A stretch of DNA of 56,511 nt from a virus (IMGVR_UViG_3300045284_000397:1-56511), one strand, 5' to 3'; shown: positions 1-56,511, counted from the first letter of the stretch. Notes: generated by a model from the sequence alone, not told the origin. Made by a program: numbers and translations.

Positions 1-51
1 GCTCTCTGCCGCGACCTGACCTTTCGCAAAAGCGTGGAGTCGGCGCTGTGA
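1..51 (+). CDS. CgeB-like glycosyltransferase, C-terminal piece (duplicate of gene at 55662-56435)
   Basis: The first 16 codons read in frame to a TGA at 49-51 and are the C-terminus of the gene at 55662-56435, present a second time only because the contig ends overlap. It should be merged with that gene and not counted as separate. The next gene starts inside its stop codon (GTGA overlap), so translation is coupled across the contig joint. Confidence 0.9.
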   Translation, partial: ALCRDLTFRKSVESAL

Positions 52-127
52 CGAAGGTGATCAGCTATACCGCCTTATTATATGGTTGCGATTATCTCGG
101 CTACGCCATTCGCAGCGTGATCGACGC
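1..127. repeat. Terminal overlap, left copy (circular closure)
   Basis: Bases 1-127 are identical to bases 56385-56511. The repeat cuts through coding sequence (the end of one glycosyltransferase and the start of the next), so it has no sign of being a packaging site. An overlap of exactly 127 bases equals a common maximum assembler k-mer, so it most likely reflects a circular or circularly permuted genome of 56,384 unique bases. Confidence 0.93.
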
Positions 128-800
128 TGTTGATGAACACTGGGTACTCTACACGCCCGTAGGATCGCATGGCTCACGCACGAGCGTCCCGTGCCCGGAC
201 ACACGCGACGAACTGTACGCGATTGCTTCGCAGGCGGCGGGCGCGAAGCTGCGCTGGGTCGAGCGTGACGACTGGTTTGGCGAGGGCGCTCAGCGCGACA
301 GCATTCACCAGTACGCGCCGGATGCAAGTCTGATTGTCACCGTAGACTACGATGAAATTATGCAGCCGGGACTTCTCGAATACGCGCTCCAGGTTGCAGT
401 CGATAGTGACGTGCGCCGCTGGCGTTTACCGTTCCGGCACTACTTCAGGAGTTTCTACAAGTGCATCCTTCACGATCCGGCGTTTCCGGTTCGCATCATC
501 AAGCCCAGCGCGGCGAACGTTGAATTGACAATGGACATGCACGGGATGGCGGTGAACCATCTAGGGTACGCAATTACGCCTGAAATGATGCGCTACAAGT
601 GGCAGCTTCACGGGCATAAGAACGAACTACGCCACGATGTGGACTACTTCACGGACATCTATGAGGCGAACCGTCAGTATGACACGCATCCCGTAGGTTC
701 GACTTATTGGAATCCTGAAACAGTAGACCCGTTCGCTGAGGGCTGGTTCCCCGAATGGATGAAATCACATCCGTTCGCAAAGATGCAAGTGATCGAATGA
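48..800 (+). CDS. Putative glycosyltransferase (GT-A like)
   Basis: A 250-aa protein starting at a GTG that overlaps the preceding stop (GTGA). The N-terminus (VISYTALLYGCDYLGYAIRS) resembles the nucleotide-sugar-binding start of GT2-like enzymes, and a D-Y-D triad at residues 100-102 is a good candidate for the metal-binding DxD motif. It is one of six glycosyltransferase genes in the late operon between the capsid gene and the head-tail connectors. It would transfer a sugar to an unknown acceptor, plausibly a virion protein or a glycan on it. The family is diverged, so the exact GT family is not certain. Confidence 0.65.
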   Translation: MTKVISYTALLYGCDYLGYAIRSVIDAVDEHWVLYTPVGSHGSRTSVPCPDTRDELYAIASQAAGAKLRWVERDDWFGEGAQRDSIHQYAPDASLIVTVDYDEIMQPGLLEYALQVAVDSDVRRWRLPFRHYFRSFYKCILHDPAFPVRIIKPSAANVELTMDMHGMAVNHLGYAITPEMMRYKWQLHGHKNELRHDVDYFTDIYEANRQYDTHPVGSTYWNPETVDPFAEGWFPEWMKSHPFAKMQVIE

Positions 801-811: not shown

Positions 812-878
812 ATGAGCAATGAAATCGCCGTTCGCGCTGTCTCACCAGCCAACGGCTCTAGCGCACAGGAGCGCCAGC

Positions 879-1322
879 ATGTCCCCTAGTATACCTCAAA
901 AGCGATGCCCCAAGTGTAAAGAATATAAGCCCGCTACGACCGAGTTCTTTCATGTTGACAAACGGTATCCATGTGGGTTTAGGAGTTGGTGTAAAGATTG
1001 CACGCACGCAGATAATAATGCGCGCGGGATAACGCCTAAGGGAAAAGAACAGAAAAAGAACTTTTTACGTAGCGAAGCTGGTAAACGGTCACGGGCGCGA
1101 ATTATGCGGAACTATGTAGAGAACAACCGTGACCAACGTTCGGCGCATTTTACTGTACAACAAGCAGTTCGTGCAGGAAGATTAGCGCCCGTTATATCAA
1201 GACTATGCGTCAAATGCGGAAAGCAAGCTGAGTGCTATCACCATTGGAGTTATGCGCCTGAGCATCGTCTCGACGTTATTCCGATGTGCCTTGTTTGTCA
1301 CGGTAAGGAGCATAATTCGTGA
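879..1322 (+). CDS. Zinc-ribbon HNH-type endonuclease (free-standing, homing-like)
   Basis: A 147-aa protein. The ATG at 879 is chosen over an upstream ATG at 819 because AGGAG ends 7 bases before it. The N-terminus has a CPKCKEYKP...CKDC zinc ribbon typical of phage HNH proteins, then a basic helical linker, and the C-terminus has CVKCGK...YHHW...CLVC, a degenerate HNH/zinc fold. Such genes are free-standing homing-type endonucleases that insert between structural genes. It interrupts the glycosylation cluster, carries its own candidate promoter, and its stop overlaps the next start (GTGA). Base composition is visibly more AT-rich than its neighbours, consistent with later arrival. Confidence 0.72.
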   Translation: MSPSIPQKRCPKCKEYKPATTEFFHVDKRYPCGFRSWCKDCTHADNNARGITPKGKEQKKNFLRSEAGKRSRARIMRNYVENNRDQRSAHFTVQQAVRAGRLAPVISRLCVKCGKQAECYHHWSYAPEHRLDVIPMCLVCHGKEHNS

Positions 1323-2200
1323 AAACATTTGAGGAGTTAAAAGCGCTTATTGAACAAAGAGGGACGCACCAAGTGTTCGGCTCGCCCGGCGAGGGGTTTG
1401 CAATCGAGCAGAACGCGGATGAACTGGCGCGCTTCCTGGTCGTGTGCCAGGAGCTTGGCGTGACCTCATGCCTCGAAATCGGAACAGGCTACCGGGCGGG
1501 GTTGGCGCGCTTCCTGCACGACGATATGAATTGGCAGGTCGTGAGCGTGGACATTCACGACTACGGACACGAGTTCGGCGGCATACGGTTTCTGACACTC
1601 GACAACCCCGACACGTGGGGGCAGTTTGACCTCATCATCATTGACGCTGACCACAGCTATGACGCGGTGAAAGCCGACGATGCGCGCTGGCGACCCCACG
1701 CCGAAAAACTCCTCATGTTCCACGACATCGCCGGGTTGCGCGAGTGCGAAGGCGTGCGCGATTACTGGAATGAGATTGCCTACGACGGGAGCGAACTCAA
1801 GCCCGGCTACCACGAGATTATCACCGACACGCCCGAACGCGGCGGGATTGGCTATATCGTGCTGGCGGAAGTCGCAGCAGAAGCGGGAAAATACAATCCC
1901 GGATATGGCGAAGCGCCAATCAAGCGGGCAATCGAGACACGTGACAAAGCCGCTTATGTCGCAGCGAAGACCTATGACGCGATTGAAGCCGATGCACGCG
2001 CCAAAGAGGATGCGGAGGTCGTAGCATACCAACCACTCGCCATTACGCCTTCAACGCAGGAAGTCATCGAGGCGACAGATGAGGACGGAAATGTCACCGC
2101 GAAAATTAATGACAATACGAAGGCAAAGCCTGCGCCTCGTAAACCGCGAACGGCAAACAAAGCAAAGACGACGACTAAACGGACGGCGAAGAAGAAATGA
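1319..2200 (+). CDS. Class I SAM-dependent methyltransferase with Lys-rich tail
   Basis: A 293-aa protein with a Rossmann methyltransferase core. EIGTG at residues 53-57 is the glycine-rich SAM-binding motif I, an acidic residue follows at the end of beta-2 (VSVDIHDYG), and LIIIDADHSYD at about 105-115 matches the CmcI/Methyltransf_24 type often found beside sugar-modifying enzymes. After about residue 175 there is a helical linker, then roughly 30 residues rich in Lys, Ala, Thr and Pro. The GTG start overlaps the HNH stop. It likely O-methylates sugars or a protein in the same cluster; the basic tail may tether it to an acidic surface or nucleic acid. The substrate is unknown. Confidence 0.75.
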   Translation: MKTFEELKALIEQRGTHQVFGSPGEGFAIEQNADELARFLVVCQELGVTSCLEIGTGYRAGLARFLHDDMNWQVVSVDIHDYGHEFGGIRFLTLDNPDTWGQFDLIIIDADHSYDAVKADDARWRPHAEKLLMFHDIAGLRECEGVRDYWNEIAYDGSELKPGYHEIITDTPERGGIGYIVLAEVAAEAGKYNPGYGEAPIKRAIETRDKAAYVAAKTYDAIEADARAKEDAEVVAYQPLAITPSTQEVIEATDEDGNVTAKINDNTKAKPAPRKPRTANKAKTTTKRTAKKK

Positions 2201-2406
2201 GCGAGCAGCCAACTCTTACGCAGCAGCAGATTGTCGAGGCATGCCAGAAGTTGGAAAGCGCGCGTATAGTGGCGTTGCAGAGACTGAACGACCTGTTCAA
2301 GGTTGAGCGGGAGGCGGTCTGGGAGCAGTATTACGCGGTGCTCGACTTCATGGGGTTGGACAAAGACGGCGCGTTGAAATCAACGAAGCCGAAGAGGACG
2401 CTGTGA
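2197..2406 (+). CDS. Small helical protein, unknown function
   Basis: A 69-aa protein starting at an ATG that overlaps the methyltransferase stop (ATGA). It appears mostly alpha-helical with a basic C-terminus (KSTKPKRTL). I do not recognise a family. Tight coupling to the methyltransferase and to the next membrane protein supports it as a real gene. Confidence 0.6.
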   Translation: MSEQPTLTQQQIVEACQKLESARIVALQRLNDLFKVEREAVWEQYYAVLDFMGLDKDGALKSTKPKRTL

Positions 2407-2555
2407 GCGAACGTAACGATACTTTCCTGCTCATCACTGCGATGCTTATTAGTTTCGTCTGTGCCGGACTGTGGTTAGCAGTTGGCAACGTGTTCTTTTT
2501 CCTGCCACTTGTGACCGGGATTATGTTTTATCGCGCGATTGTGAGTGAGCATTAA
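2403..2555 (+). CDS. Small membrane protein, 50 aa
   Basis: A GTG start overlaps the previous stop (GTGA), and the frame runs 50 codons to TAA at 2553-2555, three bases before the next start. It begins MSERNDTF, then has two closely spaced hydrophobic segments (LLITAMLISFVCAGLWLAV and FFFLPLVTGIMFY), so it is predicted to be a two-pass membrane hairpin. No family is recognised. A membrane protein inside a glycosyltransferase cluster could anchor or organise the enzymes, but that is speculation. Confidence 0.6.
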   Translation: MSERNDTFLLITAMLISFVCAGLWLAVGNVFFFLPLVTGIMFYRAIVSEH

Positions 2556-2557: not shown

Positions 2558-3211
2558 ATGCCCCAACCGCTCGTGTCCATTCTGCTACCCCATCTCCACG
2601 AGCCGGAAAACGACAAGGCGCTGCGCATCTGTCTCGACTGTATCATCGCCAACACGGGGCTGAACTTTGAGCTTATCATGGAGAGCGTTGCCGAGCGCCG
2701 CGACATCTACCGCGTGATTAATAGCATGGCGGCGCGAGCCAATGCCTACTGGCTCATTCCCATGAACAGCGACGTATTCGTGTCCCCCGGCTGGCTTGAG
2801 CCGATTTACGAAGCGCGCGACCTGAACGCGATTGTGTCCCCGTGCATGGTTGAGCCGGGCGCTATCGGCGTCAACGAGCGCAACATTCATAAGGACTTCG
2901 GGATGCGCCCGGAAACGTTTCGCCGGAGCGAATTCGAGGCGTGGGTCGCAGCGGGCGGCGACTGGTCGATCAACTGGCTCGAGGGGGAATGGGCATGGTT
3001 CTACCCAAGTCTGATCTCACAATCCAGTTTCCTAACGGTCATGGGGGGCTTTGACACGAAGAAAGGCTCTTTTCCAGACCCGATTGACATCGACTTCTGG
3101 AATCGCTGGGAAGTGAATGGAGGGAAGTTTAAGCGCGTGCGATCATGGGTATATCACTTGCAAAACTACTCAAACCCTGATGAGCAGAAGAAAGCCGTGC
3201 GCCACGCATGA
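2558..3211 (+). CDS. Family 2 glycosyltransferase
   Basis: A 217-aa GT-A fold protein. LVSILLPHL near the N-terminus is the typical first strand, NSMAARANAYWLIPMNSDV at about 55-73 holds the nucleotide-sugar and metal site (N-S-D in place of DxD), and SFLTVMGGFDTKKGSFPDP later is the acceptor-side GGFD motif found in rhamnosyl- and galactosyl-type GT2 enzymes. It overlaps the next gene by four bases (ATGA). Donor and acceptor cannot be read from the sequence. Confidence 0.78.
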   Translation: MPQPLVSILLPHLHEPENDKALRICLDCIIANTGLNFELIMESVAERRDIYRVINSMAARANAYWLIPMNSDVFVSPGWLEPIYEARDLNAIVSPCMVEPGAIGVNERNIHKDFGMRPETFRRSEFEAWVAAGGDWSINWLEGEWAWFYPSLISQSSFLTVMGGFDTKKGSFPDPIDIDFWNRWEVNGGKFKRVRSWVYHLQNYSNPDEQKKAVRHA

Positions 3212-4176
3212 GGATATTGTACTGTCCGATTTTCGTCAAAGGCACGTATTACGAGACGCAGCGGCGGACGAAGCATGGCTTACGCGACGCGCTCGCGCTG
3301 CAAGGAGAGTGCCGCGAACTGGATTATCTGAACGCGCTGAACGTGGGCGACGCACTCCGTGCCGAACTCGACAGCTTGCGCCCGGAACTGCTGTTCTTGC
3401 AGATGCAGGGCACAACGCCGATCACGCCGACGCTGCTGGCGGACTTGCGTGCCGAATACCCCGCGCTGACGGTCGTGAACTGGAACGGGGATTACTATCC
3501 CGAACACCTGATTTCGCCCGACATGCTCGACTTGCTGCGCCATGTCGATTTGCAACTGACGGTCAACGCTTCGGTGTTGTTCGCCTATGCCGAGGCGGGT
3601 ATCCACGCGAAATACTGTCCGTTCGGCTATGAAGCGCCGATCAGCCCGCTCCCAGAGACGAAGGCGCATGAGCTTGTCTTTCTCGGCAACAATTACAGCG
3701 AGAAGCGCAAGGCGCTCTACGACGTGCTGCGCTTCATCCGGCACGACGTGGGCATTTACGGTTCGGGGTGGGAGTGGTCGGATGGCGAGTGCAACTATGA
3801 CTTCGCCTACTCCCAAGCGCTCTATCAGCGCGCGCTGATCGCCATCAGCGACAACCAGTTCCCCGACGCGCTCGGCTATCTGAGCGACCGTCCGTTCCAG
3901 GTGCTTGCTGCTAATGGCGCGATCCTGTTTCAGCAGCGCGTGCTCGGACTGGAAGCGCTGACCGGGCTGAAGGCGGGTGTGCATTACGTCGAATTTGTCG
4001 AACTGGACGACCTGTACGGACTGGTCAAATATTGGGTCAAGCCCTCGCAGCGCCCGGAACGGGAACGCATGGCGGCGGCGGGGCGTAATCTGGTACAAGC
4101 GCGGCATTTATGGCGGCATCGGGTGGAGACGCTGGTGCAGAGTTGGCTGCCGGAAGTGGTGGGAGAGCGGGCGTGA
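3208..4176 (+). CDS. CgeB-like glycosyltransferase
   Basis: A 322-aa protein of the CgeB/GT-B-like family. It starts MRILYCPIFVKGTYYETQ, has VNWNGDYYPE and a central LVFLGNNYSEKRKALYDVL motif followed by VGIYGSGW, then the C-terminal nucleotide-sugar-binding half with AISDNQFPDALGYLSDRPFQ and LAANGAILFQQ. This order is the hallmark of the CgeB family, which adds sugars to spore coat or cell-surface proteins in bacteria. It is closely related to the second half of the fusion protein at 4582-6366, so the two are probably paralogues. Its start overlaps the upstream GT2 gene. Confidence 0.8.
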   Translation: MRILYCPIFVKGTYYETQRRTKHGLRDALALQGECRELDYLNALNVGDALRAELDSLRPELLFLQMQGTTPITPTLLADLRAEYPALTVVNWNGDYYPEHLISPDMLDLLRHVDLQLTVNASVLFAYAEAGIHAKYCPFGYEAPISPLPETKAHELVFLGNNYSEKRKALYDVLRFIRHDVGIYGSGWEWSDGECNYDFAYSQALYQRALIAISDNQFPDALGYLSDRPFQVLAANGAILFQQRVLGLEALTGLKAGVHYVEFVELDDLYGLVKYWVKPSQRPERERMAAAGRNLVQARHLWRHRVETLVQSWLPEVVGERA

Positions 4177-4592
4177 GTTTCAATGAAATCAACTATCGAA
4201 CACGTCAATCCATGATAGATGGTTTTTTGGCGAATTGGAGAGCACAACACTATTATGAAACCCAATCCCAATGGAGTGATGTTCTGCCGCACTCTACAAA
4301 GCATAGTGACAGGCAAGAGGTCTACGATGTGTTGAAATTACTGCCTATAATCAATGAAGTAGATATACAGCGTGTCTTTGATCGGATATTAAGCCGCCCT
4401 GGAACTCACTCAATAGGCAGGAAGCCAATTACCTTCCAGTGCGATCTTTGCCGAGAGGAAGTCGCTGGATTGTGCGAAATACAGCTTGACGGATTTGGTT
4501 TGTGCTTTTGCGCGCCATGTTTAGAGAAAATGGCAATATCAGTAAGAGTTCATGCATCTGGCGTTTCTGAGAGTATCCCAAATGTTCCTTAG
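4173..4592 (+). CDS. Putative zinc-binding protein, unknown function
   Basis: A 139-aa protein with a GTG start overlapping the previous stop. The C-terminal half contains CDLC...CEIQ...CFCAPC, a likely four-Cys zinc site. The N-terminal half looks helical with no recognised motif. The local sequence is AT-richer than the glycosyltransferases around it, suggesting separate acquisition. The gene ends 11 bases inside the next coding region. Confidence 0.6.
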   Translation: MSFNEINYRTRQSMIDGFLANWRAQHYYETQSQWSDVLPHSTKHSDRQEVYDVLKLLPIINEVDIQRVFDRILSRPGTHSIGRKPITFQCDLCREEVAGLCEIQLDGFGLCFCAPCLEKMAISVRVHASGVSESIPNVP

Positions 4593-6366
4593 CATCGTCA
4601 CGGGCAGCTTCCAGCGTCTCGATTACCTGCGTGCCATGTGCGAGAGCGTGCGCCGTCAACTCCCGCAGGGCATGGAATACGAATTCGTTGTTGTGGACGG
4701 CGGAAGCACGGACGGCACTCAGGCATGGTGCGCCGCGCAGCCCGACGTGACGCTGATTGAACAGGGCGCGCTCTACGGCGCGATCCGCGCTTTCAATGCG
4801 GGAGCGGCGGCGGCTCATGGCGAGTACGTGGCGCTGCTGAATGATGATGTGCTGGTGGTAGACGGCGCAATGATTAAAGCGCTCGTCTATCTCGATAGTC
4901 ACCCGGACTGCGGCGCGGTCGCCTTCATGGATGATCGTCCCGCGCCCGGTTACGAAGCGCCCGGCTATCATGTTCAGACCATCCGCGCTCTGAAAGCGGA
5001 CGGTAGTCCGCTTGATGTGGTCTACGCGCAGTGCGGCTTGTATTGCAAATGGCTCGGCGATCTCGTCGGTTGGTGGGACATCGGCGTGCCTGAGCAGCAC
5101 ACCTACGGCGGCGACGCGGCGTTGTCGGCGAAAATCTGGGAGCGCGGCTATCGTGTGGATGCAGTGGTCGGTGTGGCGGTCAATGACCGCGTGGCGCGAG
5201 ACGACTTGCGCGCGCGCAATCAGCAGACGGAGGAACGGATTGGCAGCGCCTTTTACCGAGCCTACCCCAACGGCGTTCGACTCAACAGTCAGCCCAAGCC
5301 CGCTAACCCTCAGCCGGAGCGTCTCCGAATTCTGTACGCGCCTCTCTTCAGCCCAGGCTACGGGCGTTATAAACGCGGGTTGTTTGATGCTCTCGCTCGC
5401 GTCGGTCTGGTCTATGAACTCGACTACGTGCGCCAGCGCGGAAAGTTCCTGCGCGCCGTCGCCGACTTTCAACCCCACCTGATCCTGACGCAGTTGCACG
5501 ACGCGCACAGCATTACGGCGCAGATGCTCGAAGCGGCGCGGCAGAGCGTGCCGGGCGCGGTGATCGTCAACTGGTGTGGCGATGTCTATGCCGACCAGTT
5601 GACCGCGCCGGATATGCTCGAACTGCTGAAACAGATCGATTTGCAACTGGTCGTCAACGCCGACGTGCTACCCGTGTACGCCGCGCACGGTATACATGCT
5701 GCTTACTGGCAGATTGGCTTTGAGCCTGTGCCGGATGAACTGCCGGACATGCCCGCGCATGAGATTGTCTTTCAGGGCAACGCTTACAGCCCGGCGCGCA
5801 AACTGCTGGCGGCGGCGCTCTACGAGATGAGTGGGGATGTAGGAATTTATGGACTGGGTTGGGATAGAAGCAGCGGCAATACCTTCTACGACTTTGCCCG
5901 AAGCGCCGCGTTGTATCGCAACTGCAAAATCGCAGTGGGTGACAACCAGTATTCCGATAAAGGTTTCGTGTCGAACCGTCTCTTCGAGGCGATCTCAAAT
6001 GGGACATTCCTACTTCACCAAACGATACCTGGTCTTGAGGAACTCACAGGGCTGATAGATGGCACGCATTACATCTCCTGGCTGGATTTAGCCGACTTAC
6101 GCGACAAAGCACGTTACTACCTCGCGCCGGAGCATGAGGACGAACGCCAGCAAATTGCAGCGGCAGGGGAGGCGTTTGTGCGGGCACATCACAGCTTCGA
6201 CGCGCGTGTCCGTGAATTGTTCCAGCAATTGCTACCGAGAGTGAATCAGAATGAACGCTCAACAACTCCTTCAGGCGATGCAATCGGGCGCGAAACTAAC
6301 GTCGCTCTGGAAGCTGAGAACCGAGATTATGCGCCCAAAAATGATCTATCGATTGGCATATCCTGA
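4582..6366 (+). CDS. Bifunctional GT2 + CgeB-like glycosyltransferase fusion
   Basis: A 594-aa protein starting at ATG 4582; an upstream ATG at 4552 adds ten residues but lies inside the previous gene. Residues 1 to about 230 form a GT2 domain (FLSIVTGSFQRLDYL, VVVDGGSTDGT at about 37-46, LLNDDV at 86-90 as the DxD region, and YGGDAALSAKIW). From about residue 248, LRILYAPLFSPGYGRYKRG begins a CgeB-like domain with VNWCGDVYAD, IVFQGNAYSPARKLL and AVGDNQYSDKGFVSNRLFEA. The fusion could add two sugars in sequence. The last 38 or so residues overlap the next gene in another frame and do not look like CgeB sequence, so the ancestral stop was probably near 6253 and a small indel has extended the frame. 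Confidence 0.8.
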   Translation: MFLSIVTGSFQRLDYLRAMCESVRRQLPQGMEYEFVVVDGGSTDGTQAWCAAQPDVTLIEQGALYGAIRAFNAGAAAAHGEYVALLNDDVLVVDGAMIKALVYLDSHPDCGAVAFMDDRPAPGYEAPGYHVQTIRALKADGSPLDVVYAQCGLYCKWLGDLVGWWDIGVPEQHTYGGDAALSAKIWERGYRVDAVVGVAVNDRVARDDLRARNQQTEERIGSAFYRAYPNGVRLNSQPKPANPQPERLRILYAPLFSPGYGRYKRGLFDALARVGLVYELDYVRQRGKFLRAVADFQPHLILTQLHDAHSITAQMLEAARQSVPGAVIVNWCGDVYADQLTAPDMLELLKQIDLQLVVNADVLPVYAAHGIHAAYWQIGFEPVPDELPDMPAHEIVFQGNAYSPARKLLAAALYEMSGDVGIYGLGWDRSSGNTFYDFARSAALYRNCKIAVGDNQYSDKGFVSNRLFEAISNGTFLLHQTIPGLEELTGLIDGTHYISWLDLADLRDKARYYLAPEHEDERQQIAAAGEAFVRAHHSFDARVRELFQQLLPRVNQNERSTTPSGDAIGRETNVALEAENRDYAPKNDLSIGIS

Positions 6367-6568
6367 CTTAAAGACTATATTGGTTCAGTACAGCGCGGTT
6401 GCGGCATGTCTGCATCGTGGAGAAATCCGGCGCATTGAACGCCTTTGGAGCACCGAGTATGAAGTCGTGGAGACGAGAGTGAGCGCCGATGGACGAGCCG
6501 ATGACCGCGCTGAGACAGTGGCGGGCGCTGAGAGCATGGAGGCGTGGGCAGATGGTATCCCGCGATGA
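6251..6568 (+). CDS. Small protein, unknown function, overlapping both neighbours
   Basis: A 105-aa frame starting at ATG 6251. The first 75 residues look like genuine protein (aliphatic, with a basic helix and a Trp/Tyr pair). The last 30, Ala/Asp/Arg rich, overlap the next gene in another frame and look unselected. It overlaps the preceding gene by 116 bases and the following one by 80, unusual for this genome where overlaps are 1-11 bases. Frame erosion at both ends is likely. No family recognised. Confidence 0.5.
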   Translation: MNAQQLLQAMQSGAKLTSLWKLRTEIMRPKMIYRLAYPDLKTILVQYSAVAACLHRGEIRRIERLWSTEYEVVETRVSADGRADDRAETVAGAESMEAWADGIPR

Positions 6569-6740
6569 AATGGAACGCGCCTACTTTGAGCAGTTTCAGG
6601 CGCTTGACGATGATCCTTACGCCTATCTTCAGTCCGTAGACCGTTTCCCGCTGCCCTGGGAGTGGTATCGCATCATTTCGCTTGAGGAGTGGGAAGTATT
6701 GTATACCCAATGGAAACGGTATCACCCTGACGCCCCTTGA
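6489..6740 (+). CDS. Small Trp/Tyr-rich protein, unknown function
   Basis: An 83-aa protein starting at ATG 6489. It is rich in Trp, Tyr and Glu, with WEWYRIISLEEWEVLYTQW near the C-terminus. I do not recognise it. It overlaps the DUF1360-like membrane protein that follows by 59 bases if that gene starts at TTG 6682. Confidence 0.55.
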   Translation: MDEPMTALRQWRALRAWRRGQMVSRDEMERAYFEQFQALDDDPYAYLQSVDRFPLPWEWYRIISLEEWEVLYTQWKRYHPDAP

Positions 6741-6999
6741 CCTGATCATCCTGTCGGCGGCATCCTGTTACTGGGCATTCGTGCTCGTCAAGAAGGATGG
6801 CGCATTCGGCGCGTTTCGACGACTGCGCGAGGTGACGACCTTCGGCGGGCTGCTACTATGTCCGCCATGTCTGGTCTTCTGGGTCGCTGTGGGCTTCTGG
6901 CTGCTGTGGCAGACGCCGCTCGCACCGATTGTGACAGTCAGCGCAGTCGCGGGCGCGGCAACGTTGGCGGGCTACTATACGGGGACGTGGCAGCAATGA
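6682..6999 (+). CDS. DUF1360-like membrane protein
   Basis: Up to 105 aa. LTPLDLIILSAASCYWAF, a GAFGAFRRLRE loop, then GGLLLCPPCLVFWVAVGFW and a third hydrophobic segment match the DUF1360 pattern of small three-helix membrane proteins with a CxxC before the second helix. Only a TTG at 6682 provides an in-frame start; family similarity begins about 15 residues later, so the true start is unsure. Its stop overlaps the next start (ATGA). Members are common in phages and bacteria, with no proven function. Confidence 0.65.
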   Translation: MRSGKYCIPNGNGITLTPLDLIILSAASCYWAFVLVKKDGAFGAFRRLREVTTFGGLLLCPPCLVFWVAVGFWLLWQTPLAPIVTVSAVAGAATLAGYYTGTWQQ

Positions 7000-24052: not shown

Positions 24053-24159
24053 TCGCGCATCACGCGGGTGCTGGGCGTGCTCTATCCGATTATCCTTCCG
24101 GCGTTCCTGCTGCTCTTGCAGCGCGTAATGAGAACCCATCCGGCTTGACTCTCGCCTAG
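23935..24159 (+). CDS. Chimeric leader peptide fused out of frame to a membrane-protein tail
   Basis: The open frame gives 74 aa: 39 residues identical or nearly so to the leader of 21377-21853, then 35 residues without protein character. In the +1 frame, 24053-24148 encodes RITRVLGVLYPIILPAFLLL then LQRVMRTHPA and a stop, which looks like the C-terminal membrane helix of a real protein. The leader duplication therefore appears to have replaced the front of an older membrane protein gene and lost its frame. Expression may still yield a secreted or membrane peptide. Confidence 0.5.
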   Translation: MRSPMHRILLVCFVCLLFALLTEGVAACRQPLAAAQGAQFAHHAGAGRALSDYPSGVPAALAARNENPSGLTLA

Positions 24160-42283: not shown

Positions 42284-43651
42284 ATGGCGGTCAGGAAACA
42301 GGCTGAGCCGAGCGTTGAGCGCCGGAAGATTAGCGACCTCACGCCCGACCCGTCAAACGCGAATGTCGGCACGGAGCGCGGCTTATCCATGCTCGACGAC
42401 AGCCTGAGCGTATCCGGGCTGGGACGCAGCATTGTCACCGACAAGCACGGCGTGATCATCGCGGGCAATAAGACGACGGAGCGTGCTATAGATCGTGGCT
42501 TCGAGAACGCGGTCATCGTCCATACGCGCGGCGATGAACTGGTCGTCGTGCAGCGCGACGACCTCGATCTCGCGGACAATGACCCGAATAACCCGGCGCG
42601 GCGCATGGCGTACTATGACAACCGTGTTGCGCAAATGGATTTGCAGTGGTCGCCGGAGCAGTTACTCGCCGATGTGAACGCGGGCTTCGACTTCGAGCAC
42701 CTGTTCAGCGCGGGCGAACTCGATGCGCTACTGGCGGGGCTGAATGGCGAACCCGGCGCAGGCGGCGATGCGAATGCGCTGATGAACCATGCTGAGGAAT
42801 TGCGCGATAAGTATCAGGTTGAACGTGGACAGCTTTGGAATATCGGGCAGCATCGTCTGCTTTGTGGCGACAGCTACAGCATGGACGACGTTGACCGATT
42901 GACCGAGGGCTACGTGGTGGATATGCTGCACACCGATCCACCGTATGGGATAAACATTGTGCAACCGCACAAGGGTGATCGATCCGCCGCTATCGGTGGA
43001 TCGAAGCCATTCGGGTCAACCGCATCAACCGGACGCAAAGGGAAGTCCGCTGTCGCGGAACGCGACAGCGGCAAGGTAGGCGGCGGGACTGGCGCGCCAG
43101 TGCGCCAGTCCCGCCATGATGTTGGCAGGGGCAACCCTGCCAACATCATTCAGAGCAACGTATATCCTGTCATCGAAGGCGACGACCATCCATTTGACCC
43201 GACTGTGTTCCTCAACCTCGCGCCGATTGTCATCCTGTGGGGCGCGAACTATTACGCCGACCAACTGCCGATTTCCTCATGTTGGATATGTTGGGACAAA
43301 CGCGAGGACATTACGCGCAATAACTTCGCGGATTGTGAACTGGCATGGACGAACCTCGACAAGCCCGCGCGCCTGTTTCATCACCTCTGGAACGGTCTGC
43401 ACAAAGGCAGTCAATGGGGGCAAGCGCGCATTCATCCGACCGAAAAGCCTGTCGCGCTGTTCGCCGAAATCGGCAATATGTACTGTAGAGACGGTATTTG
43501 GCTTGACCTGTTCGCCGGAAGTGGTGCGCAGATTGAAGCGGCTGAGCAGAACGGCGCGACCTGTCTGGCGCTCGAATATGAACCGCTCTACGTCGCTTGC
43601 GTCTTGGAGCGCATGTCCGGCATGGGCTTGACGCCCGAACTGCAAGCGTAA
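42284..43651 (+). CDS. ParB-like nuclease domain fused to DNA N4/N6-amino methyltransferase
   Basis: A 455-aa protein. Residues about 10-130 are ParB/Srx-like (RKISDLTPDPSNANV, IIAGNKTTERAIDRG). From about 185, QLWNIGQHRLLCGDSYSMDD starts a beta-class methyltransferase with DPPYGINI at 217-224 (motif IV) and LDLFAGSGAQIEA at about 406-418 (motif I, FxGxG), motif IV before I. Between them, about residues 232-290 are encoded by a string of perfect hairpins that appears to be an in-frame insertion. Such fusions are common in phages near terminase and modify DNA, often for protection from restriction. Confidence 0.82.
   Translation: MAVRKQAEPSVERRKISDLTPDPSNANVGTERGLSMLDDSLSVSGLGRSIVTDKHGVIIAGNKTTERAIDRGFENAVIVHTRGDELVVVQRDDLDLADNDPNNPARRMAYYDNRVAQMDLQWSPEQLLADVNAGFDFEHLFSAGELDALLAGLNGEPGAGGDANALMNHAEELRDKYQVERGQLWNIGQHRLLCGDSYSMDDVDRLTEGYVVDMLHTDPPYGINIVQPHKGDRSAAIGGSKPFGSTASTGRKGKSAVAERDSGKVGGGTGAPVRQSRHDVGRGNPANIIQSNVYPVIEGDDHPFDPTVFLNLAPIVILWGANYYADQLPISSCWICWDKREDITRNNFADCELAWTNLDKPARLFHHLWNGLHKGSQWGQARIHPTEKPVALFAEIGNMYCRDGIWLDLFAGSGAQIEAAEQNGATCLALEYEPLYVACVLERMSGMGLTPELQA
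42979..43149 (+). repeat. Four tandem hairpins inside the methyltransferase coding sequence
   Basis: Hairpin 1: TCGATCCGCCG-CTAT-CGGTGGATCGA (42979-43004, one G-T). Hairpin 2: CCGCTGTCGCG-GAA-CGCGACAGCGG (arms 43047-43057, 43061-43071), perfect. Hairpin 3: GGCGGGACTGGCGC (43082-43095) with GCGCCAGTCCCGCC (43102-43115), perfect. Hairpin 4: ATGATGTTGGCAGGG (43116-43130) with CCCTGCCAACATCAT (43135-43149), perfect. All lie within about 170 bases and keep the reading frame open. Confidence 0.93.
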
Positions 43652-49041: not shown

Positions 49042-50520
49042 ATGCCGAACAACACCATTCAACTCGGCACTAAAACGTACACGATGGACGAACTGAAGGT
49101 GCTGGAAAAGGCGGGTATGATCAGCCTCGGCGCGAAGAACAACCCGGCGTCGACGACGCTCGACGCGCCCGCGCTTCAGGGGCCGTTTCAGGGCAACAGC
49201 TCGCAGTTCGGGCTTTTCTCCGCCCCCGGCGTGCGTCCGCAGCGTTTCTCGGCGCTGGAACGCCCCTTCTCGTTTATGAACCTGCTCTCCATGACCAAGA
49301 GCGCCTACGCCAATGACATCCTCGAAATCATGACCGGGCAGACCGCCTCGTCAGGCACGAACGCGACGGGTTTCTGCGGCGATCCGCCCACCGTCGGACA
49401 GCTCAAGACGTGCGCTCAGGTCTTCGGCTGGGGCAGCTACTACATCAAAACCAACCTCGAAGCGGCTGGACTGATCGGGCAGTTGCGCAATCGCGCCGAC
49501 GTGCCCGCGCAAATCCTCAACGCTGGCCCCAACTACAACCCGCTCATCCCGGAACTGATGTATCAACTCGCCGACACCCGCGACCCGATGCAGACGGAGT
49601 TTTTCCGCATCGGCGTGGACTTAGAGCGCACGATGGAACTGAACGGCGTGCTGGGTCAGGCGGGCGTGGCAGCCAGCACGATCAACGGTCTGCCCAACAC
49701 GGGCTGGATCACCCAGTTCTCAGGCATTGACCAGCAGGTGAAAACAGGCTACCGGGATCAGCTTGCCGCCGGGACGCCGCTCTGCGCCGCCGCCGACAGC
49801 GCGGTCGTCTCGTTCAACGCCCTGATCACCGGCAACGGCGCGCAGGGCGTGGATGTCGTCAAGGCGCTCACGTCGCTCTATCGCGGCTTGAAGCTGCGCG
49901 CCTCGCGCGTCGGCATGGCGAACGTCCGGCTCGTGATCGTCATGCGCCAGGAACTGTTCCAGCCGCTGACGGAAGTCTGGGCGTGCAACTACTCGACGTA
50001 TGCCTGCGCGGGCAGCACCAGCGCGCCGAACATGCGCGACGGGATGCGCATCCAGGAACTGCGCACGGAGATGTACGCCAACCAGTACCTCTTAATCGAC
50101 GGTGTGCAAGTGCCGGTTGCCTTCAGCGACGGCATCGCGCTCGACGCGACCGCCAACCAGACCTATAACAGCGACGTGTACATTCTGCCCGTCGAATGGG
50201 AAGGGATGCCGCTGCTGCGCATGGAATACTACGACATGGCGAACGGCTATACCGAACGCTGGTCGAACGCCATCATGCAGCAGACGCGCGTCATCAACAA
50301 CGGCATGTACCTGATGGGCGTGAGAAGCACGGGACTATGCTTCGAGTATCATCTCCAAGCCCGCTTCCGATTGATCCTCGAAACGCCTTTTCTGAGTGGT
50401 CGCTTGAATGACCTTCAGGCTCAGTACATCGACCCGGCGCTGATGCCTTATCCATCGACCAGCCTCTATGTTAATGGGGGTATTACTTATCGCGGAGCTT
50501 TGACGGCAGCGAACATCTAG
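49042..50520 (+). CDS. Major capsid protein
   Basis: A 492-aa protein, AGGAGG before the ATG, immediately after the protease-scaffold. The first 75 residues are helical (YTMDELKVLEKAGMIS) and may be trimmed. The remainder is a mix of beta strands and helices (RFSALERPFSFMNLLSMTKS, EIMTGQTASSGTNATGFCGD) consistent with an HK97 fold. Long C-terminal region with VYILPVEWEGMPLLRMEYYD. Position and size leave little doubt. Confidence 0.82.
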   Translation: MPNNTIQLGTKTYTMDELKVLEKAGMISLGAKNNPASTTLDAPALQGPFQGNSSQFGLFSAPGVRPQRFSALERPFSFMNLLSMTKSAYANDILEIMTGQTASSGTNATGFCGDPPTVGQLKTCAQVFGWGSYYIKTNLEAAGLIGQLRNRADVPAQILNAGPNYNPLIPELMYQLADTRDPMQTEFFRIGVDLERTMELNGVLGQAGVAASTINGLPNTGWITQFSGIDQQVKTGYRDQLAAGTPLCAAADSAVVSFNALITGNGAQGVDVVKALTSLYRGLKLRASRVGMANVRLVIVMRQELFQPLTEVWACNYSTYACAGSTSAPNMRDGMRIQELRTEMYANQYLLIDGVQVPVAFSDGIALDATANQTYNSDVYILPVEWEGMPLLRMEYYDMANGYTERWSNAIMQQTRVINNGMYLMGVRSTGLCFEYHLQARFRLILETPFLSGRLNDLQAQYIDPALMPYPSTSLYVNGGITYRGALTAANI

Positions 50521-51847: not shown

Positions 51848-53068
51848 ATGAGCGTGGATACTAAACGGGAATATATGGATCGGCATTCTCATATTAATTT
51901 TCAGTTTGACATCAATTGTTTACCCGCTCGTGTATGGCAGTTGCTAGGTCAGATTGAGGCAAAATGCGATCAGATTTCTGGAATTCCTCTTTCTCCAAAG
52001 ATAGCTGACCGAATGTATTTGGTGTACCTGGCGAAAGGCGCACAGGCAACCGTAGCAATTGAGGGCAATACACTGACTGAAGCAGAAGTGCAACAACTTG
52101 TTCCTGAAGGGGGGACACTCGATTTACCACCTTCATTGGAATACCTTGAAAAAGAGGCGAAGAACATTATCAATGCTTGCAACATTGTCAAAGATTATGT
52201 TCTCGAAAAAAAGGACAACAATTCAGTCGCGCTCACGGTTGAAGAAATACAAAAACTCCATGAGATGGTTCTTTCAGATTTACCTCTAAGACAAGACGTT
52301 GAACGTGGAGAATTTCGCACGTACCCCGCTGGTGTGGGGTCATATGCTGGCGCTCCTGCTCAAGACATACCATATTTGACAAATCTTCTCTGCAAGTGGA
52401 TGAATAGAAACCTCCAAGTACCGGAAAACAGTCGAATTCCTATTGGGATTGTAAAAGCAATTCTGGCTCATCTTTACATCGAATGGATACACCCATTTGG
52501 TGATGGAAATGGGCGAACTGGGCGAATGCTTGAGTTTAGACTTCTCCTAGCAGCGGGACTGCCGACTGTTGCCGCCCACCTGCTTACGAACCATTATAAT
52601 ATGACCCGAAGCGAGTATTATCGACATCTGGATATGAGTTCAAAATTGCAAGATGATGCAGGTGTATACCTATTCCTTGAGTATGCGCTTCAGGGTTTTA
52701 GGGATCAACTGAACCGTCAAATCGCTTATGTAGAAGAACAACAGTTGAAAATGAGTTGGCAAAGCTATGTCAATGAAGTTTTTGGCGAATATCCAACAGA
52801 GCGAGAGATTCGGCAAAAGCAATTACTATTCGATTTGTCGGAGCATGACAAGCCCGTTCCGTTAAACAACCTACGGCATGTGTCACCCCGTGTTGCTGAA
52901 GCGTATGCAACACTAGCGGACAAGACTTTCCGCCGCGATGTGAGGGACTTAGGTCATATGGATTTGCTCAAGCTAAAGGATGACGGCATTGTGGCGAACC
53001 GTGATTTGATGAGAGCATTTTTACCCCAACGACGTGAAGTGAATCAATTGACTGACATAACTGAGTAA
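51848..53068 (+). CDS. Fic family protein (AMP-transferase type)
   Basis: A 406-aa protein; ATG 51848, with GTG 51854 as an alternative better spaced from GGAGG. The Fic core motif HPFGDGNGRTGR is at 215-226 with the catalytic His. An N-terminal TVAIEGN (68-74) is the inhibitory [ST]xxxE[GN] helix of class II Fic proteins, so the enzyme should be autoinhibited until the helix is displaced. The C-terminal 90 residues resemble a winged helix. It would transfer AMP to a hydroxyl of a target protein. It is AT-richer than surrounding phage genes, has its own promoter and terminator, and lies within the segment that splits the HNH gene. Confidence 0.88.
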   Translation: MSVDTKREYMDRHSHINFQFDINCLPARVWQLLGQIEAKCDQISGIPLSPKIADRMYLVYLAKGAQATVAIEGNTLTEAEVQQLVPEGGTLDLPPSLEYLEKEAKNIINACNIVKDYVLEKKDNNSVALTVEEIQKLHEMVLSDLPLRQDVERGEFRTYPAGVGSYAGAPAQDIPYLTNLLCKWMNRNLQVPENSRIPIGIVKAILAHLYIEWIHPFGDGNGRTGRMLEFRLLLAAGLPTVAAHLLTNHYNMTRSEYYRHLDMSSKLQDDAGVYLFLEYALQGFRDQLNRQIAYVEEQQLKMSWQSYVNEVFGEYPTEREIRQKQLLFDLSEHDKPVPLNNLRHVSPRVAEAYATLADKTFRRDVRDLGHMDLLKLKDDGIVANRDLMRAFLPQRREVNQLTDITE

Positions 53069-53484: not shown

Positions 53485-53967
53485 CTAAAGGGCGGGTTGA
53501 GTTCAGCTTGTAAGCCTTGTGCGACCCAATACACACGCGAACATGAACACAAAGACCCGGAGCGAACCGCACGCGAGAAACGTGAATGGCGCAAAGCCAA
53601 TCCCGATAAGGTTAAAAAGCATAAAGCCAATTCTCAGAAGCGACATCCTGAATCCAGTTCGCGTCGAGCGAAACGCTACAGCCAACGGCATCCTGATCGC
53701 ATCTTAGCCAATGTTCATCGGCGGCGGGCGCACAGGCTTGGCAATGGTGGGCGATATACGCAAGCGGACATTGATCTCCAATTACGTTCACAAAAGGGTT
53801 TATGTTGGTGGTGTGGGCACACGCTCGATAAATATCATATCGATCATCGCATCCCCCTGTCTCGCGGGGGTAGCAATGCGCCTGAGAATATCGTGATCAG
53901 TTGCCCAATGTGTAACATGTCAAGAAACAACAAATTGCCCTCCGAATGGTCTAATCGCCTGTTATGA
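53485..53967 (+). pseudogene. HNH endonuclease, C-terminal half (gene interrupted)
   Basis: In frame from about 53485: LKGGLSSACKPCATQYTREH completes the second zinc ribbon begun at 50828. A basic linker follows (KANPDKVKKHKANSQKRHPE). The catalytic core has GLCWWCGHTLDKYHIDHRIP, SRGGSNAPENIV and CPMCNMSRNNKLP, a complete HNH with C-C/H-H-N pattern. A TTG at 53497 or an internal start might still express the core, but there is no good ribosome site. It overlaps the next gene by four bases. Confidence 0.8.
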
Positions 53968-54968
53968 AACGACCTGCGACGTTCATCGTAGCCTGTGCGC
54001 CCTATCACGATAAGATTGTTGAGCGCGCCGTTGAGAGTGTGCGTTGCCAGACCATCCCTTCCGAGTGTATCGTCGTGTACGACCGAGACAAGCGTGGCGC
54101 GGGCTGGGCGCGCAACCGAGCGATTGAGCAGGTCAAGACGGATTTCATCATTCCGCTCGATGCCGATGACTTCGTTGAGCCGGATTACGTTGAGGCGACG
54201 CTGGGGGTATACGATGGTCGCAAATACGTGTATACCGACTGGATTGAGGCGGGCGTAGTCGAAGCGCCGGAGTGTGCCTGGATTAACCAGACGTGGCACG
54301 TGATTACCTCACTTCTGCCGACGAGTTGGATTAGGTTCGCGGGTGGATTTGACGAGAGCCTGAGTGGTTCAGAGGACACGGAGCTATTCGTCAAGCTGAC
54401 CCGCTCCGGCTTGTGTGGCAAGCGGTTGGCGCGCGCGCTCTTTCACTACACGGCGGACGGGCAGCGCGGGCGGCAGTTCGTCTACGGCGATACGGACGTG
54501 TTTGGCGGCGGCGTCAGTTACCGCTCGACAATGGACTTGATTACACAGCGTTATGGAGGCTTGGCGATGGGCTGCTGTCAGGATACCGTTTCACAGGACA
54601 ATTTCGGCGTGGGGCAGGCGCAGCCCGGCGACGTGCTGGCGACCATTCTGCGCGAAGGCTCACGCCAGTTTGTCGGCTCAGCGACCGGGCGCGTCTACAA
54701 GCGCAACGGGAACGCGCATCAGTTGTTCATGCATCCGGCGGACATCGACCAGCACCCGGAACTGTTCAGCCGCGTCGTCGAAATGCCGCCGCCCGTCGAT
54801 GAAGCGAAGATGGCGGAATTCCGCGCGCTGGCGGATAAGGTCATGGGCACGAAGCCTGCAATGCAAACCGCGCCCGTGATGGACGTGGCGCTCAGTGACG
54901 GCAACGCGGAGATTGTGCCCGATGTGGCGACCATATTGCGCTTATACGAAAATCGTGCTAGTCTATAG
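53964..54968 (+). CDS. Family 2 glycosyltransferase with C-terminal virion-type domain
   Basis: A 334-aa protein. The GT2 domain (1 to about 215) has FIVACAPYHDKIVERAVESV, VVYDRDKRGAGWARNRAIEQ, IIPLDADDF (DxD at 66-69) and FAGGFDESLSGSEDTELFVK (ED near 137, a catalytic acid). From about 225, PGDVLATILREGSRQFVGSA, TGRVYKRNG and LFMHPADIDQHPELFSR form a small beta domain of a type I associate with phage head or tail decoration. The fusion hints that the enzyme docks on the virion. It opens the glycosylation island and overlaps the HNH C-half stop. Confidence 0.75.
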   Translation: MKRPATFIVACAPYHDKIVERAVESVRCQTIPSECIVVYDRDKRGAGWARNRAIEQVKTDFIIPLDADDFVEPDYVEATLGVYDGRKYVYTDWIEAGVVEAPECAWINQTWHVITSLLPTSWIRFAGGFDESLSGSEDTELFVKLTRSGLCGKRLARALFHYTADGQRGRQFVYGDTDVFGGGVSYRSTMDLITQRYGGLAMGCCQDTVSQDNFGVGQAQPGDVLATILREGSRQFVGSATGRVYKRNGNAHQLFMHPADIDQHPELFSRVVEMPPPVDEAKMAEFRALADKVMGTKPAMQTAPVMDVALSDGNAEIVPDVATILRLYENRASL

Positions 54969-55043
54969 AAGCAAGAAGGCGCTCCGCAGGTGCAACTCTG
55001 CCGAACGCCCCTCTGTCAATCAGCCGAGGAGGACTGAAAGCAT

Positions 55044-55238
55044 ATGAAACAGTTTACCGTAATCTTTCGCCCACGTCACGTACCCATTTTCGAGCAAGCC
55101 CTCTTTATCCTGGACGCCGCGTTGGTCTGGGCATTTCTCATTGTCCCATGCCTGCAATTCAAGAATGATGCTGTCTTGTACCTGTGCAGCGTCGGCGCGG
55201 GCTGGCTGGCGGCGTGGTGGATCGGCGGCGCATCATGA
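55044..55238 (+). CDS. Small two-pass membrane protein
   Basis: A 64-aa protein with GAGGAGG before the ATG. FEQALFILDAALVWAFLIVP and VLYLCSVGAGWLAAWWIGG are predicted membrane helices. Unknown function. A second membrane peptide in the glycosylation island, at 2403-2555, has similar design. Confidence 0.6.
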   Translation: MKQFTVIFRPRHVPIFEQALFILDAALVWAFLIVPCLQFKNDAVLYLCSVGAGWLAAWWIGGAS

Positions 55239-55474
55239 GCGACTATCCACTCCTGACACAACTCATCCGCGACAACACACTCCTGAGTCACGAAGTCGCC
55301 GAGACGCGCTCCGCCTACTTCCTCAGCGGGCGGATGCTCACGCCCGACAACAGTGACGATGTAAACCTGCTGCGCGAACTGTCGCGGGCGGACGACGCCG
55401 GGCTGCTGATCTGGGACGAAGTGGATCGCGTGGGCGCAAACTACAAGGCGCTGCTGTTGGGGATGCGGGAATGA
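55235..55474 (+). CDS. Small helical protein, unknown
   Basis: A 79-aa protein starting at ATG 55235, overlapping the previous stop. Predicted helical, acidic (NSDDVNLLRELSRADDAGLL). Unrecognised. Coupled to neighbours by four-base overlaps. Confidence 0.55.
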   Translation: MSDYPLLTQLIRDNTLLSHEVAETRSAYFLSGRMLTPDNSDDVNLLRELSRADDAGLLIWDEVDRVGANYKALLLGMRE

Positions 55475-55665
55475 AAGTCGAAATTATCCTCGATGCCGGA
55501 TCATCTCCCATCACTTACAGCATCGGTATCGCCAATCGTGAAGAAGGCGATCTCATAATTAACAGACTGGAAAGTGCGGAAGGGAAAACAATACGTATAG
55601 CGGGTGATAAAGGCGACATGTTGATCAATACCTCACGCCTTATTACGGCGACGGTGAGATTATGA
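55471..55665 (+). CDS. Small beta-rich protein, unknown
   Basis: A 64-aa protein of alternating beta strands and turns (MKVEIILDAGSSPITYSIGI, KTIRIAGDKGDMLINTSRLI). Unrecognised. Overlaps the next gene by four bases. Confidence 0.55.
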   Translation: MKVEIILDAGSSPITYSIGIANREEGDLIINRLESAEGKTIRIAGDKGDMLINTSRLITATVRL

Positions 55666-56435
55666 CCGACATCTTCTTTGCAGAGCCGCGTCATCACTAC
55701 CAAAGTTATGAAGACCTGCGTGCTTTAATTCGTCTTTCGGAGTTTGAAACCTGCTTCATTGACGAGATTGACCCCGATAGCGATAACGCCTATGTGATCA
55801 CCATCCTGAACGGCGAAGTTCCGACAGAGGGCTATCCCAACGCCCGCGCCAAGATAGTGCTTTGGGATTTGGAATACCACCTCGACGGCGTTCACGTCCC
55901 CGGCGTGAAAGTCTGGGCAGCCGACAAATGGTACAGTGAGCAGATCGGCGGGAAATACGTCCCGATGGGTTCGCATCCTGGCTTGTGCCCCGAAGTCACC
56001 CCGAAACAGGATTTGTATGATGTCGCCTTTATCGGGTATTTCGACGGCGTGCCCCGCCGCCAACTCATTCGCCATCAGTTGATGGAGCGCGGCGTGAAAG
56101 TGTCGCCGCCGGGCGCGTGGGGGGCGGAACGGCATACTCTGCTGCGGAACAGTGCGGCGTATCTGTGTGTGCATCAGCACGAACACATCCCAACGATTGC
56201 GCCGCTGCGCATGGTCGTCGCGGCGGCTTACGGATTGGCAGTTATCAGCGAAACGGTTGCCGATGCGGGGATATTCAATGGTCTCGTGCGAGAGTGCGGA
56301 TATGATGAGATTGCCAATGTCACGAAAAGCCTAACCGCTCACTTTGAGTATATGTCGATGAACTATGGCGAAGGGTTGCATCAGGCTCTCTGCCGCGACC
56401 TGACCTTTCGCAAAAGCGTGGAGTCGGCGCTGTGA
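55662..56435 (+). CDS. CgeB-like glycosyltransferase (short)
   Basis: A 257-aa protein. IVLWDLEYHLDGVHVPGVKV, YVPMGSHPGLCPE, DLYDVAFIGYFDGVPRRQLI and NSAAYLCVHQHEHIPTIAPL with RMVVAAAYGLAVISETVADA follow the CgeB/GT-B order (central FIGY motif, then the sugar-nucleotide half). It lacks the N-terminal 50 or so residues of longer members. Its last codons and the next gene's start lie in the 127-base contig overlap. Confidence 0.75.
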   Translation: MTDIFFAEPRHHYQSYEDLRALIRLSEFETCFIDEIDPDSDNAYVITILNGEVPTEGYPNARAKIVLWDLEYHLDGVHVPGVKVWAADKWYSEQIGGKYVPMGSHPGLCPEVTPKQDLYDVAFIGYFDGVPRRQLIRHQLMERGVKVSPPGAWGAERHTLLRNSAAYLCVHQHEHIPTIAPLRMVVAAAYGLAVISETVADAGIFNGLVRECGYDEIANVTKSLTAHFEYMSMNYGEGLHQALCRDLTFRKSVESAL

Positions 56436-56511
56436 CGAAGGTGATCAGCTATACCGCCTTATTATATGGTTGCGATTATCTCGGCTACGCCATTCGCAGC
56501 GTGATCGACGC
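56385..56511. repeat. Terminal overlap, right copy
   Basis: Identical to 1-127. Includes the end of the CgeB-like gene and the first 80 bases of the next glycosyltransferase. Confidence 0.93.

What the first reader, a model, noticed from the sequence alone, without database searches (positions are those of the whole stretch)
53964..56511. Glycosylation island in the late operon, right part of the circle
Joined to 1-6366, this makes about 9 kb between capsid and connector genes with six glycosyltransferase genes (three GT2/GT-A types, two CgeB-like, one GT2-CgeB fusion), a SAM methyltransferase and two small membrane peptides. Known phages carry one or two glycosyltransferases, usually for DNA modification and in early regions. 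Here the set is in the late operon, on the strand and in the order of virion genes, and one enzyme ends in a virion-type domain. This suggests glycosylation, and perhaps O-methylation, of capsid or tail proteins during assembly, possibly to hide the particle or alter adsorption.
Basis: partly seen in the sequence, partly recalled or inferred. Interest (0 to 1): 0.85.

Follow-up and report, generated by a model that had tools for sequence, protein, structure and literature searches.

The report
Phage capsid-linked sugar-coating gene island
This uncultivated phage carries six sugar-transfer genes and a methyl-transfer gene next to its shell-protein gene, and its relatives all keep such genes in the same place, sometimes with the genes to make the sugars, which suggests that the phage sugar-coats its own particle.

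Summary
The window closes into a 56,384-bp circle through a 127-bp terminal repeat. Between the major capsid protein (HK97 fold by structure search) and the tail genes lie six glycosyltransferase (GT) genes, one SAM methyltransferase and small membrane proteins, mostly joined by 4-bp overlaps.

Two divergent phages (MCP 37-39% identical) keep the island in the same order. The window shares the head module and island with them, but no tail gene. Among 30 further terminase/MCP relatives, all 21 records of at least 30 kb with an MCP carry GTs within 10 kb downstream on the same strand (random rotation: mean 2, maximum 9). In 11 of 18 sampled, this slot also holds nucleotide-sugar genes, including heptose-kinase-, phosphatase- and nucleotidyltransferase-like enzymes. 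Many of the GTs end in a shared domain of about 60 residues with no known family.

No thymidylate-synthase-type base-modifying gene or lipid-sugar flippase was found. Glycosylation of the phage's own virion, most likely its capsid, is the best explanation (about 0.7). It is inferred; no glycan has been seen.

Phage virion glycosylation is known (Che8, Corndog, Myrna), so this is a new, larger, clade-wide variant.

The parts
49042..50520 (+). Major capsid protein (HK97 fold), the anchor of the island
   Evidence: Position after terminase, portal and protease-like genes; 37-39% identity to G001/G002; AlphaFold model of a 16-row alignment (pLDDT 64) matches phage capsid proteins in the PDB (best E 1.3e-9)
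53964..54968 (+). GT2 glycosyltransferase with C-terminal extension (GT2a)
   Evidence: PF00535 E 4.7e-10; Foldseek to GT2 enzymes E 2.6e-9; orthologues directly after the MCP in G001/G002; C-terminal domain marginal E 0.011
55044..55238 (+). 64-aa protein with one membrane helix
   Evidence: hydropathy; no homologue found
55235..55474 (+). small ORF, unknown
   Evidence: no homologue
55471..55665 (+). small ORF, unknown
   Evidence: 4-bp overlaps on both sides
55662..56435 (+). CgeB-like glycosyltransferase (PF13524-type), short form; ends at position 51 of the circle
   Evidence: 40-45% identity to orthologues in G001/G002; 2 of 6 family members hit PF13524, best 1.8e-8
48..800 (+). probable GT-A-type glycosyltransferase (VDYDE motif)
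   Evidence: 51-54% identity to orthologues in G001/G002, homologues also in G011, G024, G035 directly after the MCP; no Pfam family
819..1322 (+). ORF related to HNH-type mobile endonuclease genes (probable insertion, not part of the pathway)
   Evidence: similar to HNH-region proteins of G001/G002; no Pfam hit itself
1319..2200 (+). SAM-dependent methyltransferase with Lys-rich tail
   Evidence: PF13578 E 5.2e-4; 54% identity to G002 orthologue, which hits PF13578 at 5.9e-7
2197..2406 (+). small ORF, unknown
   Evidence: no homologue
2403..2555 (+). 50-aa membrane peptide
   Evidence: two predicted helices
2558..3211 (+). GT2 glycosyltransferase (GT2b)
   Evidence: PF00535; 46% identity to G002 orthologue
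3208..4176 (+). CgeB-like glycosyltransferase, paralogue of the fusion's second half
   Evidence: PF13524 E 7.1e-13; 35-37% identity to the C-terminal half of the G001/G002 fusions
4110..4592 (+). ORF of unknown function (start uncertain, perhaps 4173)
   Evidence: no convincing homologue
4552..6366 (+). GT2 + CgeB-like fusion glycosyltransferase
   Evidence: PF00535 4.9e-18 and PF13524 8.2e-21; 38-41% identity to the G001/G002 fusions; homologous ~600-aa fusions in G011, G024, G035
6251..6568 (+). 105-aa protein found inside the islands of relatives
   Evidence: homologues in G001 (between the GT-A and FkbM genes), G014 and G003
6682..6999 (+). small membrane protein found inside the islands of relatives
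   Evidence: two predicted helices; homologues in G002 (E 4.3e-15) and G001 lie between GT2a and the CgeB-like gene

Best explanation
The island is a virion-glycosylation module carried with the capsid gene. Late in infection the operon makes capsid protein and, from the same transcript, soluble glycosyltransferases of two fold classes. One or more of them (GT-A/GT2 type) put a first sugar on a virion protein, most likely the capsid protein or a head decoration, and the others extend it to a short oligosaccharide. The methyltransferase then caps or methylates a sugar. In window-type phages the sugar donors come from the host; in related phages the same slot also carries enzymes that make special nucleotide sugars. 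Shown here: gene content, order, clade-wide position, head-module linkage and folds. Inferred: late expression, the virion as acceptor, the order of transfer, and what the glycan is for (shielding the particle or tuning adsorption).
For: (1) Gene order MCP - GT2 - CgeB-like - GT-A - methyltransferase(s) - (GT2) - GT2/CgeB fusion is the same in the window, G001 and G002 although the proteins are 35-54% identical. (2) The window shares small terminase (with G001), terminase, portal, protease, MCP and island with them plus a primase with G002, but none of its tail genes, while G001 and G002 share tail genes with each other: the island goes with the head module. (3) In 21 of 21 relatives of at least 30 kb with an MCP the first GT lies within 10 kb downstream of the MCP on its strand; random rotation gives 2.1 on average, never more than 9 in 20,000. 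Where a connector homologue is found, the cassette lies between MCP and connector. (4) Eleven of 18 sampled relatives carry nucleotide-sugar genes in that slot: PseB-like dehydratases, NDP-sugar epimerases, HddA-like kinase, GmhB-like phosphatase, HldE-like nucleotidyltransferase, DegT aminotransferase, RmlD. (5) The MCP has the HK97 fold. (6) No thymidylate-synthase-family hydroxymethylase in 24 phages, with a working control; no multi-helix flippase in the islands; window GTs have no membrane helix. (7) Precedent: Che8, Corndog and Myrna glycosylate virion proteins (PMC12363180, citing Freeman 2023); Che8_108 joins a GT2 to what reads as a methyltransferase and weakly matches the GT2a profile.
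Against: No glycan, mass shift or expression has been measured; acceptor and sugars are unknown. The window itself has no nucleotide-sugar genes. 48-800 is only inferred to be a GT. Genes inserted behind a capsid gene can be cargo expressed late without acting on the capsid (Fic, HNH genes sit there too). Window tail genes have almost no relatives anywhere in the collections, so the head-versus-tail argument rests on three phages. The relatives share ancestry, so the 21 are not independent events.
Confidence: 0.7

Rival explanations
1. The enzymes change a host surface polymer (superinfection exclusion or serotype conversion) and only share the late operon.
For: Phage GTs commonly do this; weak PHROG match of the fusion to GtrB-like O-antigen conversion (E 0.0036); nucleotide-sugar genes in relatives are those of bacterial surface glycans.
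Against: No membrane helices in the window GTs and no multi-helix flippase or GtrA/GtrC-like protein in any sampled island; GtrB has two C-terminal helices (own knowledge), these have none; strict position in the capsid-connector slot in the whole clade.
Confidence: 0.15
2. The GTs glycosylate modified bases of phage DNA to block host nucleases.
For: Best-known role of phage GTs; DNA-modifying GTs are diverse (Pyle et al. 2024, cited in PMC12619734); the window has a ParB-DNA methyltransferase fusion (42284-43651).
Against: No thymidylate-synthase/hydroxymethylase family member in 24 phages, control positive; no TET/JBP match, but without a positive control; island far from replication genes and next to the capsid gene in every relative.
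Confidence: 0.06
3. The virion is glycosylated, but the target is a tail or fibre protein, or another late protein, not the capsid (a sub-case of the best explanation).
For: Mycobacteriophage tail tubes are glycosylated too (PMC12619734, PMC12363180); the island lies between head and tail genes.
Against: The island is shared with phages whose tail genes are unrelated to the window's.
Confidence: 0.2
4. The slot is a hot spot for mobile cargo genes and the GTs have no single common role.
For: HNH and GIY-YIG genes and a Fic gene are found in the same slot; GT sets differ between relatives.
Against: Most other recognisable cargo genes are GTs, methyltransferases or nucleotide-sugar enzymes; GT2a, CgeB-like, GT-A and fusion orthologues persist at 35-54% identity in order.
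Confidence: 0.08

Closest known systems
Virion glycosylation of mycobacteriophages Che8, Corndog and Myrna (Freeman et al. 2023; through PMC12363180, PMC11256854, PMC12619734)
   Same: Tailed phages that encode several GTs, one of them (Che8_108) apparently joined to a methyltransferase, and glycosylate capsid and tail tube proteins; Che8_108 weakly matches the GT2a profile (21.6 bits)
   Different: Che8 GTs lie at the right end, 50 kb from the MCP on the linear map, and its MCP is followed directly by the head-tail adaptor; no close sequence match for CgeB-like, GT-A, fusion or C-terminal domain; no nucleotide-sugar pathway seen in the Che8 stretches read
Chlorovirus PBCV-1 and other giant viruses with autonomous capsid glycosylation (PMC4691112)
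   Same: Virus-encoded GTs, a methyltransferase-linked GT and nucleotide-sugar enzymes build glycans on the major capsid protein
   Different: Eukaryotic algal viruses with unrelated capsid and genome; no homology tested
CgeB-like glycosyltransferases (PF13524)
   Same: Two window domains meet the Pfam cut-off; a third belongs through its homologues
   Different: Here fused to GT2 or shortened, and in a phage late operon
Gtr serotype-conversion cassettes
   Same: Phage-borne GT2 enzymes
   Different: No membrane-bound GT or flippase

Membership tests
GT2 family (PF00535) | GT-A domain scoring above the family cut-off | tested here: met
   53964 (40.1 bits), 4552 (66.1), 2558 (23.2 alone, 23.7 with its neighbours; cut-off 23.3); fold match for 53964
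CgeB-like GT (PF13524) | Glyco_trans_1_2 domain above cut-off | tested here: met
   3208 (49.2 bits) and 4552 (74.9); for 55662 only through homologues
GT-A glycosyltransferase (48-800) | Recognisable GT-A profile or fold | tested here: inconclusive
   No Pfam, PHROG or PDB hit; hhalign to GT2a not significant; DxD-type motif invariant in six homologues
HK97-fold major capsid protein (49042-50520) | HK97 fold | tested here: met
   252 PDB matches with E <= 0.001; the 50 listed are capsid or related shell proteins, best E 1.3e-9; model confidence moderate, pLDDT 64
Phage virion glycosylation system (mycobacteriophage type) | Phage-encoded GTs | tested here: met
Phage virion glycosylation system (mycobacteriophage type) | Covalent glycans on capsid or tail proteins that depend on the GTs | not testable with these tools
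   needs virions
Phage virion glycosylation system (mycobacteriophage type) | Homology of the GTs to Che8/Corndog enzymes | tested here: inconclusive
   Only a generic GT2 similarity; Corndog record not held
Phage DNA glucosylation | A base hydroxymethylase or hydroxylase beside the GT | tested here: not met
   PF00303 absent in 24 phages with working control; PF12851 absent but without control
Gtr serotype conversion | Membrane-bound GT(s) and GtrA-type flippase | tested here: not met
   No helices in window GTs; no multi-helix flippase-like protein in islands (simple hydropathy)

The most novel reading that the evidence does not exclude
An uncultivated clade of tailed phages carries an autonomous virion-glycan pathway, from nucleotide sugar to methylated oligosaccharide, as a fixed part of its head module between capsid and connector genes. 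Its glycosyltransferases share a C-terminal domain of about 60 residues with no known family that docks them on the assembling capsid.
Probability: 0.4. Interest if true: 0.8.

Novelty: new variant of a known kind. Interest (0 to 1): 0.64.

Why it matters
If true, capsid glycosylation is not an oddity of a few mycobacteriophages but a standing trait of a widespread group of environmental phages with no cultured member found here, some of which make their own special sugars. The fixed gene position lets such phages be found by synteny, and the recurring C-terminal domain offers a testable way for GTs to find the particle. It also warns against calling these genes host-metabolism (auxiliary) genes.

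Tried and rejected
Cultured phages: no match for the fusion, the MCP or the GT-A protein; DNA search of 53964-56435 gave nothing. GT-A protein against species genomes: none. Terminase hits in Zixibacteria, Hydrogenedentes and Proteobacteria MAG contigs were not used as host evidence: bins may hold stray phage contigs, and no MCP was found in the Hydrogenedentes one. Searching tail genes for head/tail exchange partners failed (one weak hit). Profile comparison of the two GT classes gave no significant link. The C-terminal half of the 53964 model has low confidence, so the domain's fold is not claimed; the domain has no meaningful PHROG or PDB match. The C-terminal domain has no match in the window's fusion enzyme, although it is clear in G001 and G002. 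Paper searches on nucleotide-sugar genes in phage late operons gave nothing closer; most subscription papers are not held.

Full report
Setting. The window is a single IMG/VR virus record of 56,511 bases. Its first and last 127 bases are identical, as expected for a circular assembly of a circularly permuted or terminally redundant phage, so the finding at 53964-56511 and the stretch 1-6366 are one continuous region. No tRNA was found.

What is in the region. Going downstream from the capsid gene: small ORFs, a GIY-YIG-like ORF on the minus strand (from reading its sequence; no Pfam hit), a Fic protein (51848-53068), an HNH endonuclease (53497-53967), then GT2 (53964-54968), three small ORFs, a CgeB-like GT (55662-56435, ending at circle position 51), a probable GT-A enzyme (48-800), an HNH-related ORF, a SAM methyltransferase (1319-2200), two small ORFs, GT2 (2558-3211), CgeB-like GT (3208-4176), an unknown ORF and a GT2 + CgeB-like fusion (4552-6366). 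Many neighbours overlap by 4 bp (53964/53967, 55471/55474, 55662/55665, 48/51, 1319/1322, 2197/2200, 2403/2406, 3208/3211), the mark of one translationally coupled operon. PF00535 has only three matches in the whole record, all in the island. The least certain GT is 48-800: no family, PDB or profile match, only a conserved VDxDE motif and position.

The anchor. The gene taken as capsid has no Pfam or PHROG match and no PDB match by sequence. A model from 16 homologues (pLDDT 64) finds phage capsid proteins as its best PDB matches (SU10, PhiTE, P23-45, HK97; best E 1.3e-9). The terminase is identified by PHROG; the portal and protease-like genes are named from order.

Relatives. Searching with the fusion and the GT-A protein found two more phages, G001 (49,215 bp) and G002 (53,154 bp). 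Their islands start directly after the MCP and keep the order GT2, CgeB-like, GT-A, methyltransferase(s), (GT2 in G002), GT2/CgeB fusion. A sensitive all-against-all comparison shows that the window shares with them small terminase (G001), terminase, portal, protease-like protein, MCP, the island and (G002) a primase, but not one tail-region protein, while G001 and G002 share many tail proteins. The island therefore goes with the head module. Window genes 6251-6568 and 6682-6999 also have homologues inside those islands, so the island reaches to about 7,000.

The wider clade. A terminase profile brought 80 viral loci and three MAG contigs. In the records examined with GT models and an MCP profile, 81 of 82 GT domains lie on the MCP strand, 67 within 12 kb and 76 within 20 kb downstream (wrap-around counted for a permuted contig). 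Records without a GT have less than 5 kb of sequence after the MCP, or no recognisable MCP. For the 21 records of at least 30 kb with both, the first GT is within 10 kb in all; random rotation and strand gives 2.1 on average and at most 9 in 20,000 trials. The phages are related, so this is a statement about the clade, not 21 independent gains. Where a connector homologue is recognised, the cassette lies between MCP and connector. Common designs are a ~600-aa GT2/CgeB fusion and an 850-1,200-aa protein with GT1/CgeB-type and two GT2 domains.

Sugar supply. In 11 of 18 sampled relatives the same slot carries nucleotide-sugar genes: PseB-like 4,6-dehydratase, NAD-dependent epimerases, GHMP kinase closest to D-glycero-D-manno-heptose 7-phosphate kinase, a phosphatase closest to GmhB, a nucleotidyltransferase closest to the HldE/RfaE second domain, DegT aminotransferases and RmlD. 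Scores are below most equivalog cut-offs, so exact substrates are not claimed. Methyltransferases (Methyltransf_24, FkbM, Methyltransf_23) recur. None of these sugar genes was found in the window, so it would depend on host sugars.

A shared C-terminal domain. GTs of about 16 phages end in, or near the end carry, a domain of about 60 residues (pattern [VI]xxxYxG...F....YRxxN....V..DA..L), including members not used to build the first profile (G025 1e-6, G006 7e-6, G007 1e-4, G011 5e-4). A stand-alone copy is in G022. It has no meaningful PHROG or PDB match. In the window it is marginal in GT2a (E 0.011 against five sequences) and not detected in the fusion. A role in tethering GTs to the particle is a guess.

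Mechanism and rivals. Virion glycosylation fits the position, the head linkage, soluble GTs, sugar supply and methyltransferases. Host-polymer modification is weakened by the lack of membrane GTs and flippases. DNA glycosylation is weakened by the lack of thymidylate-synthase-family enzymes in 24 phages and of TET/JBP (no positive control). Tail targets are not excluded. No experiment has shown any glycan here.

Known background. Phage virion glycosylation is established in mycobacteriophages (Freeman et al. 2023, not held; cited in PMC12363180, PMC11256854, PMC12619734). In Che8 the three GT genes lie at 56-59 kb, and the MCP at 5 kb is followed directly by the head-tail adaptor. Che8_108 matches the GT2a profile only weakly (21.6 bits) and, by its sequence, continues into what looks like a methyltransferase (not tested with a profile). 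Giant viruses of algae are the other parallel (PMC4691112). The kind is therefore known; the clade-wide head-module position, the number and fusion types of GTs, the sugar-supply genes and the shared domain make it a new variant.

Noticed in passing
51848-53068: Fic protein with complete HPFGDGNGRTGR motif and an upstream TVAIEGN motif like the Fic inhibitory helix, between the capsid gene and the GT island; no homologue in relatives.
   Followed up: partly
21377-21853 and 23935-24159: Two ORFs start with nearly the same signal-peptide-like sequence ([29 protein letters not shown]), a duplication in the tail-fibre region.
   Followed up: no
31548-32660 (-): DUF6745 protein with a long run of [11 protein letters not shown]-type repeats near the N-terminus.
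   Followed up: no
42284-43651: ParB-like domain joined to a DNA methyltransferase just upstream of the terminases; homologues upstream of terminase in several relatives.
   Followed up: no
L116 (G007) 3070-7448: Heptose-type kinase, phosphatase and nucleotidyltransferase plus DegT aminotransferase and epimerase genes just downstream of the capsid gene of a phage contig.
   Followed up: partly
G001, G002, G014, G022 islands and window 819-1322, 53497-53967: HNH and GIY-YIG genes are often inserted in the same capsid-connector slot.
   Followed up: no
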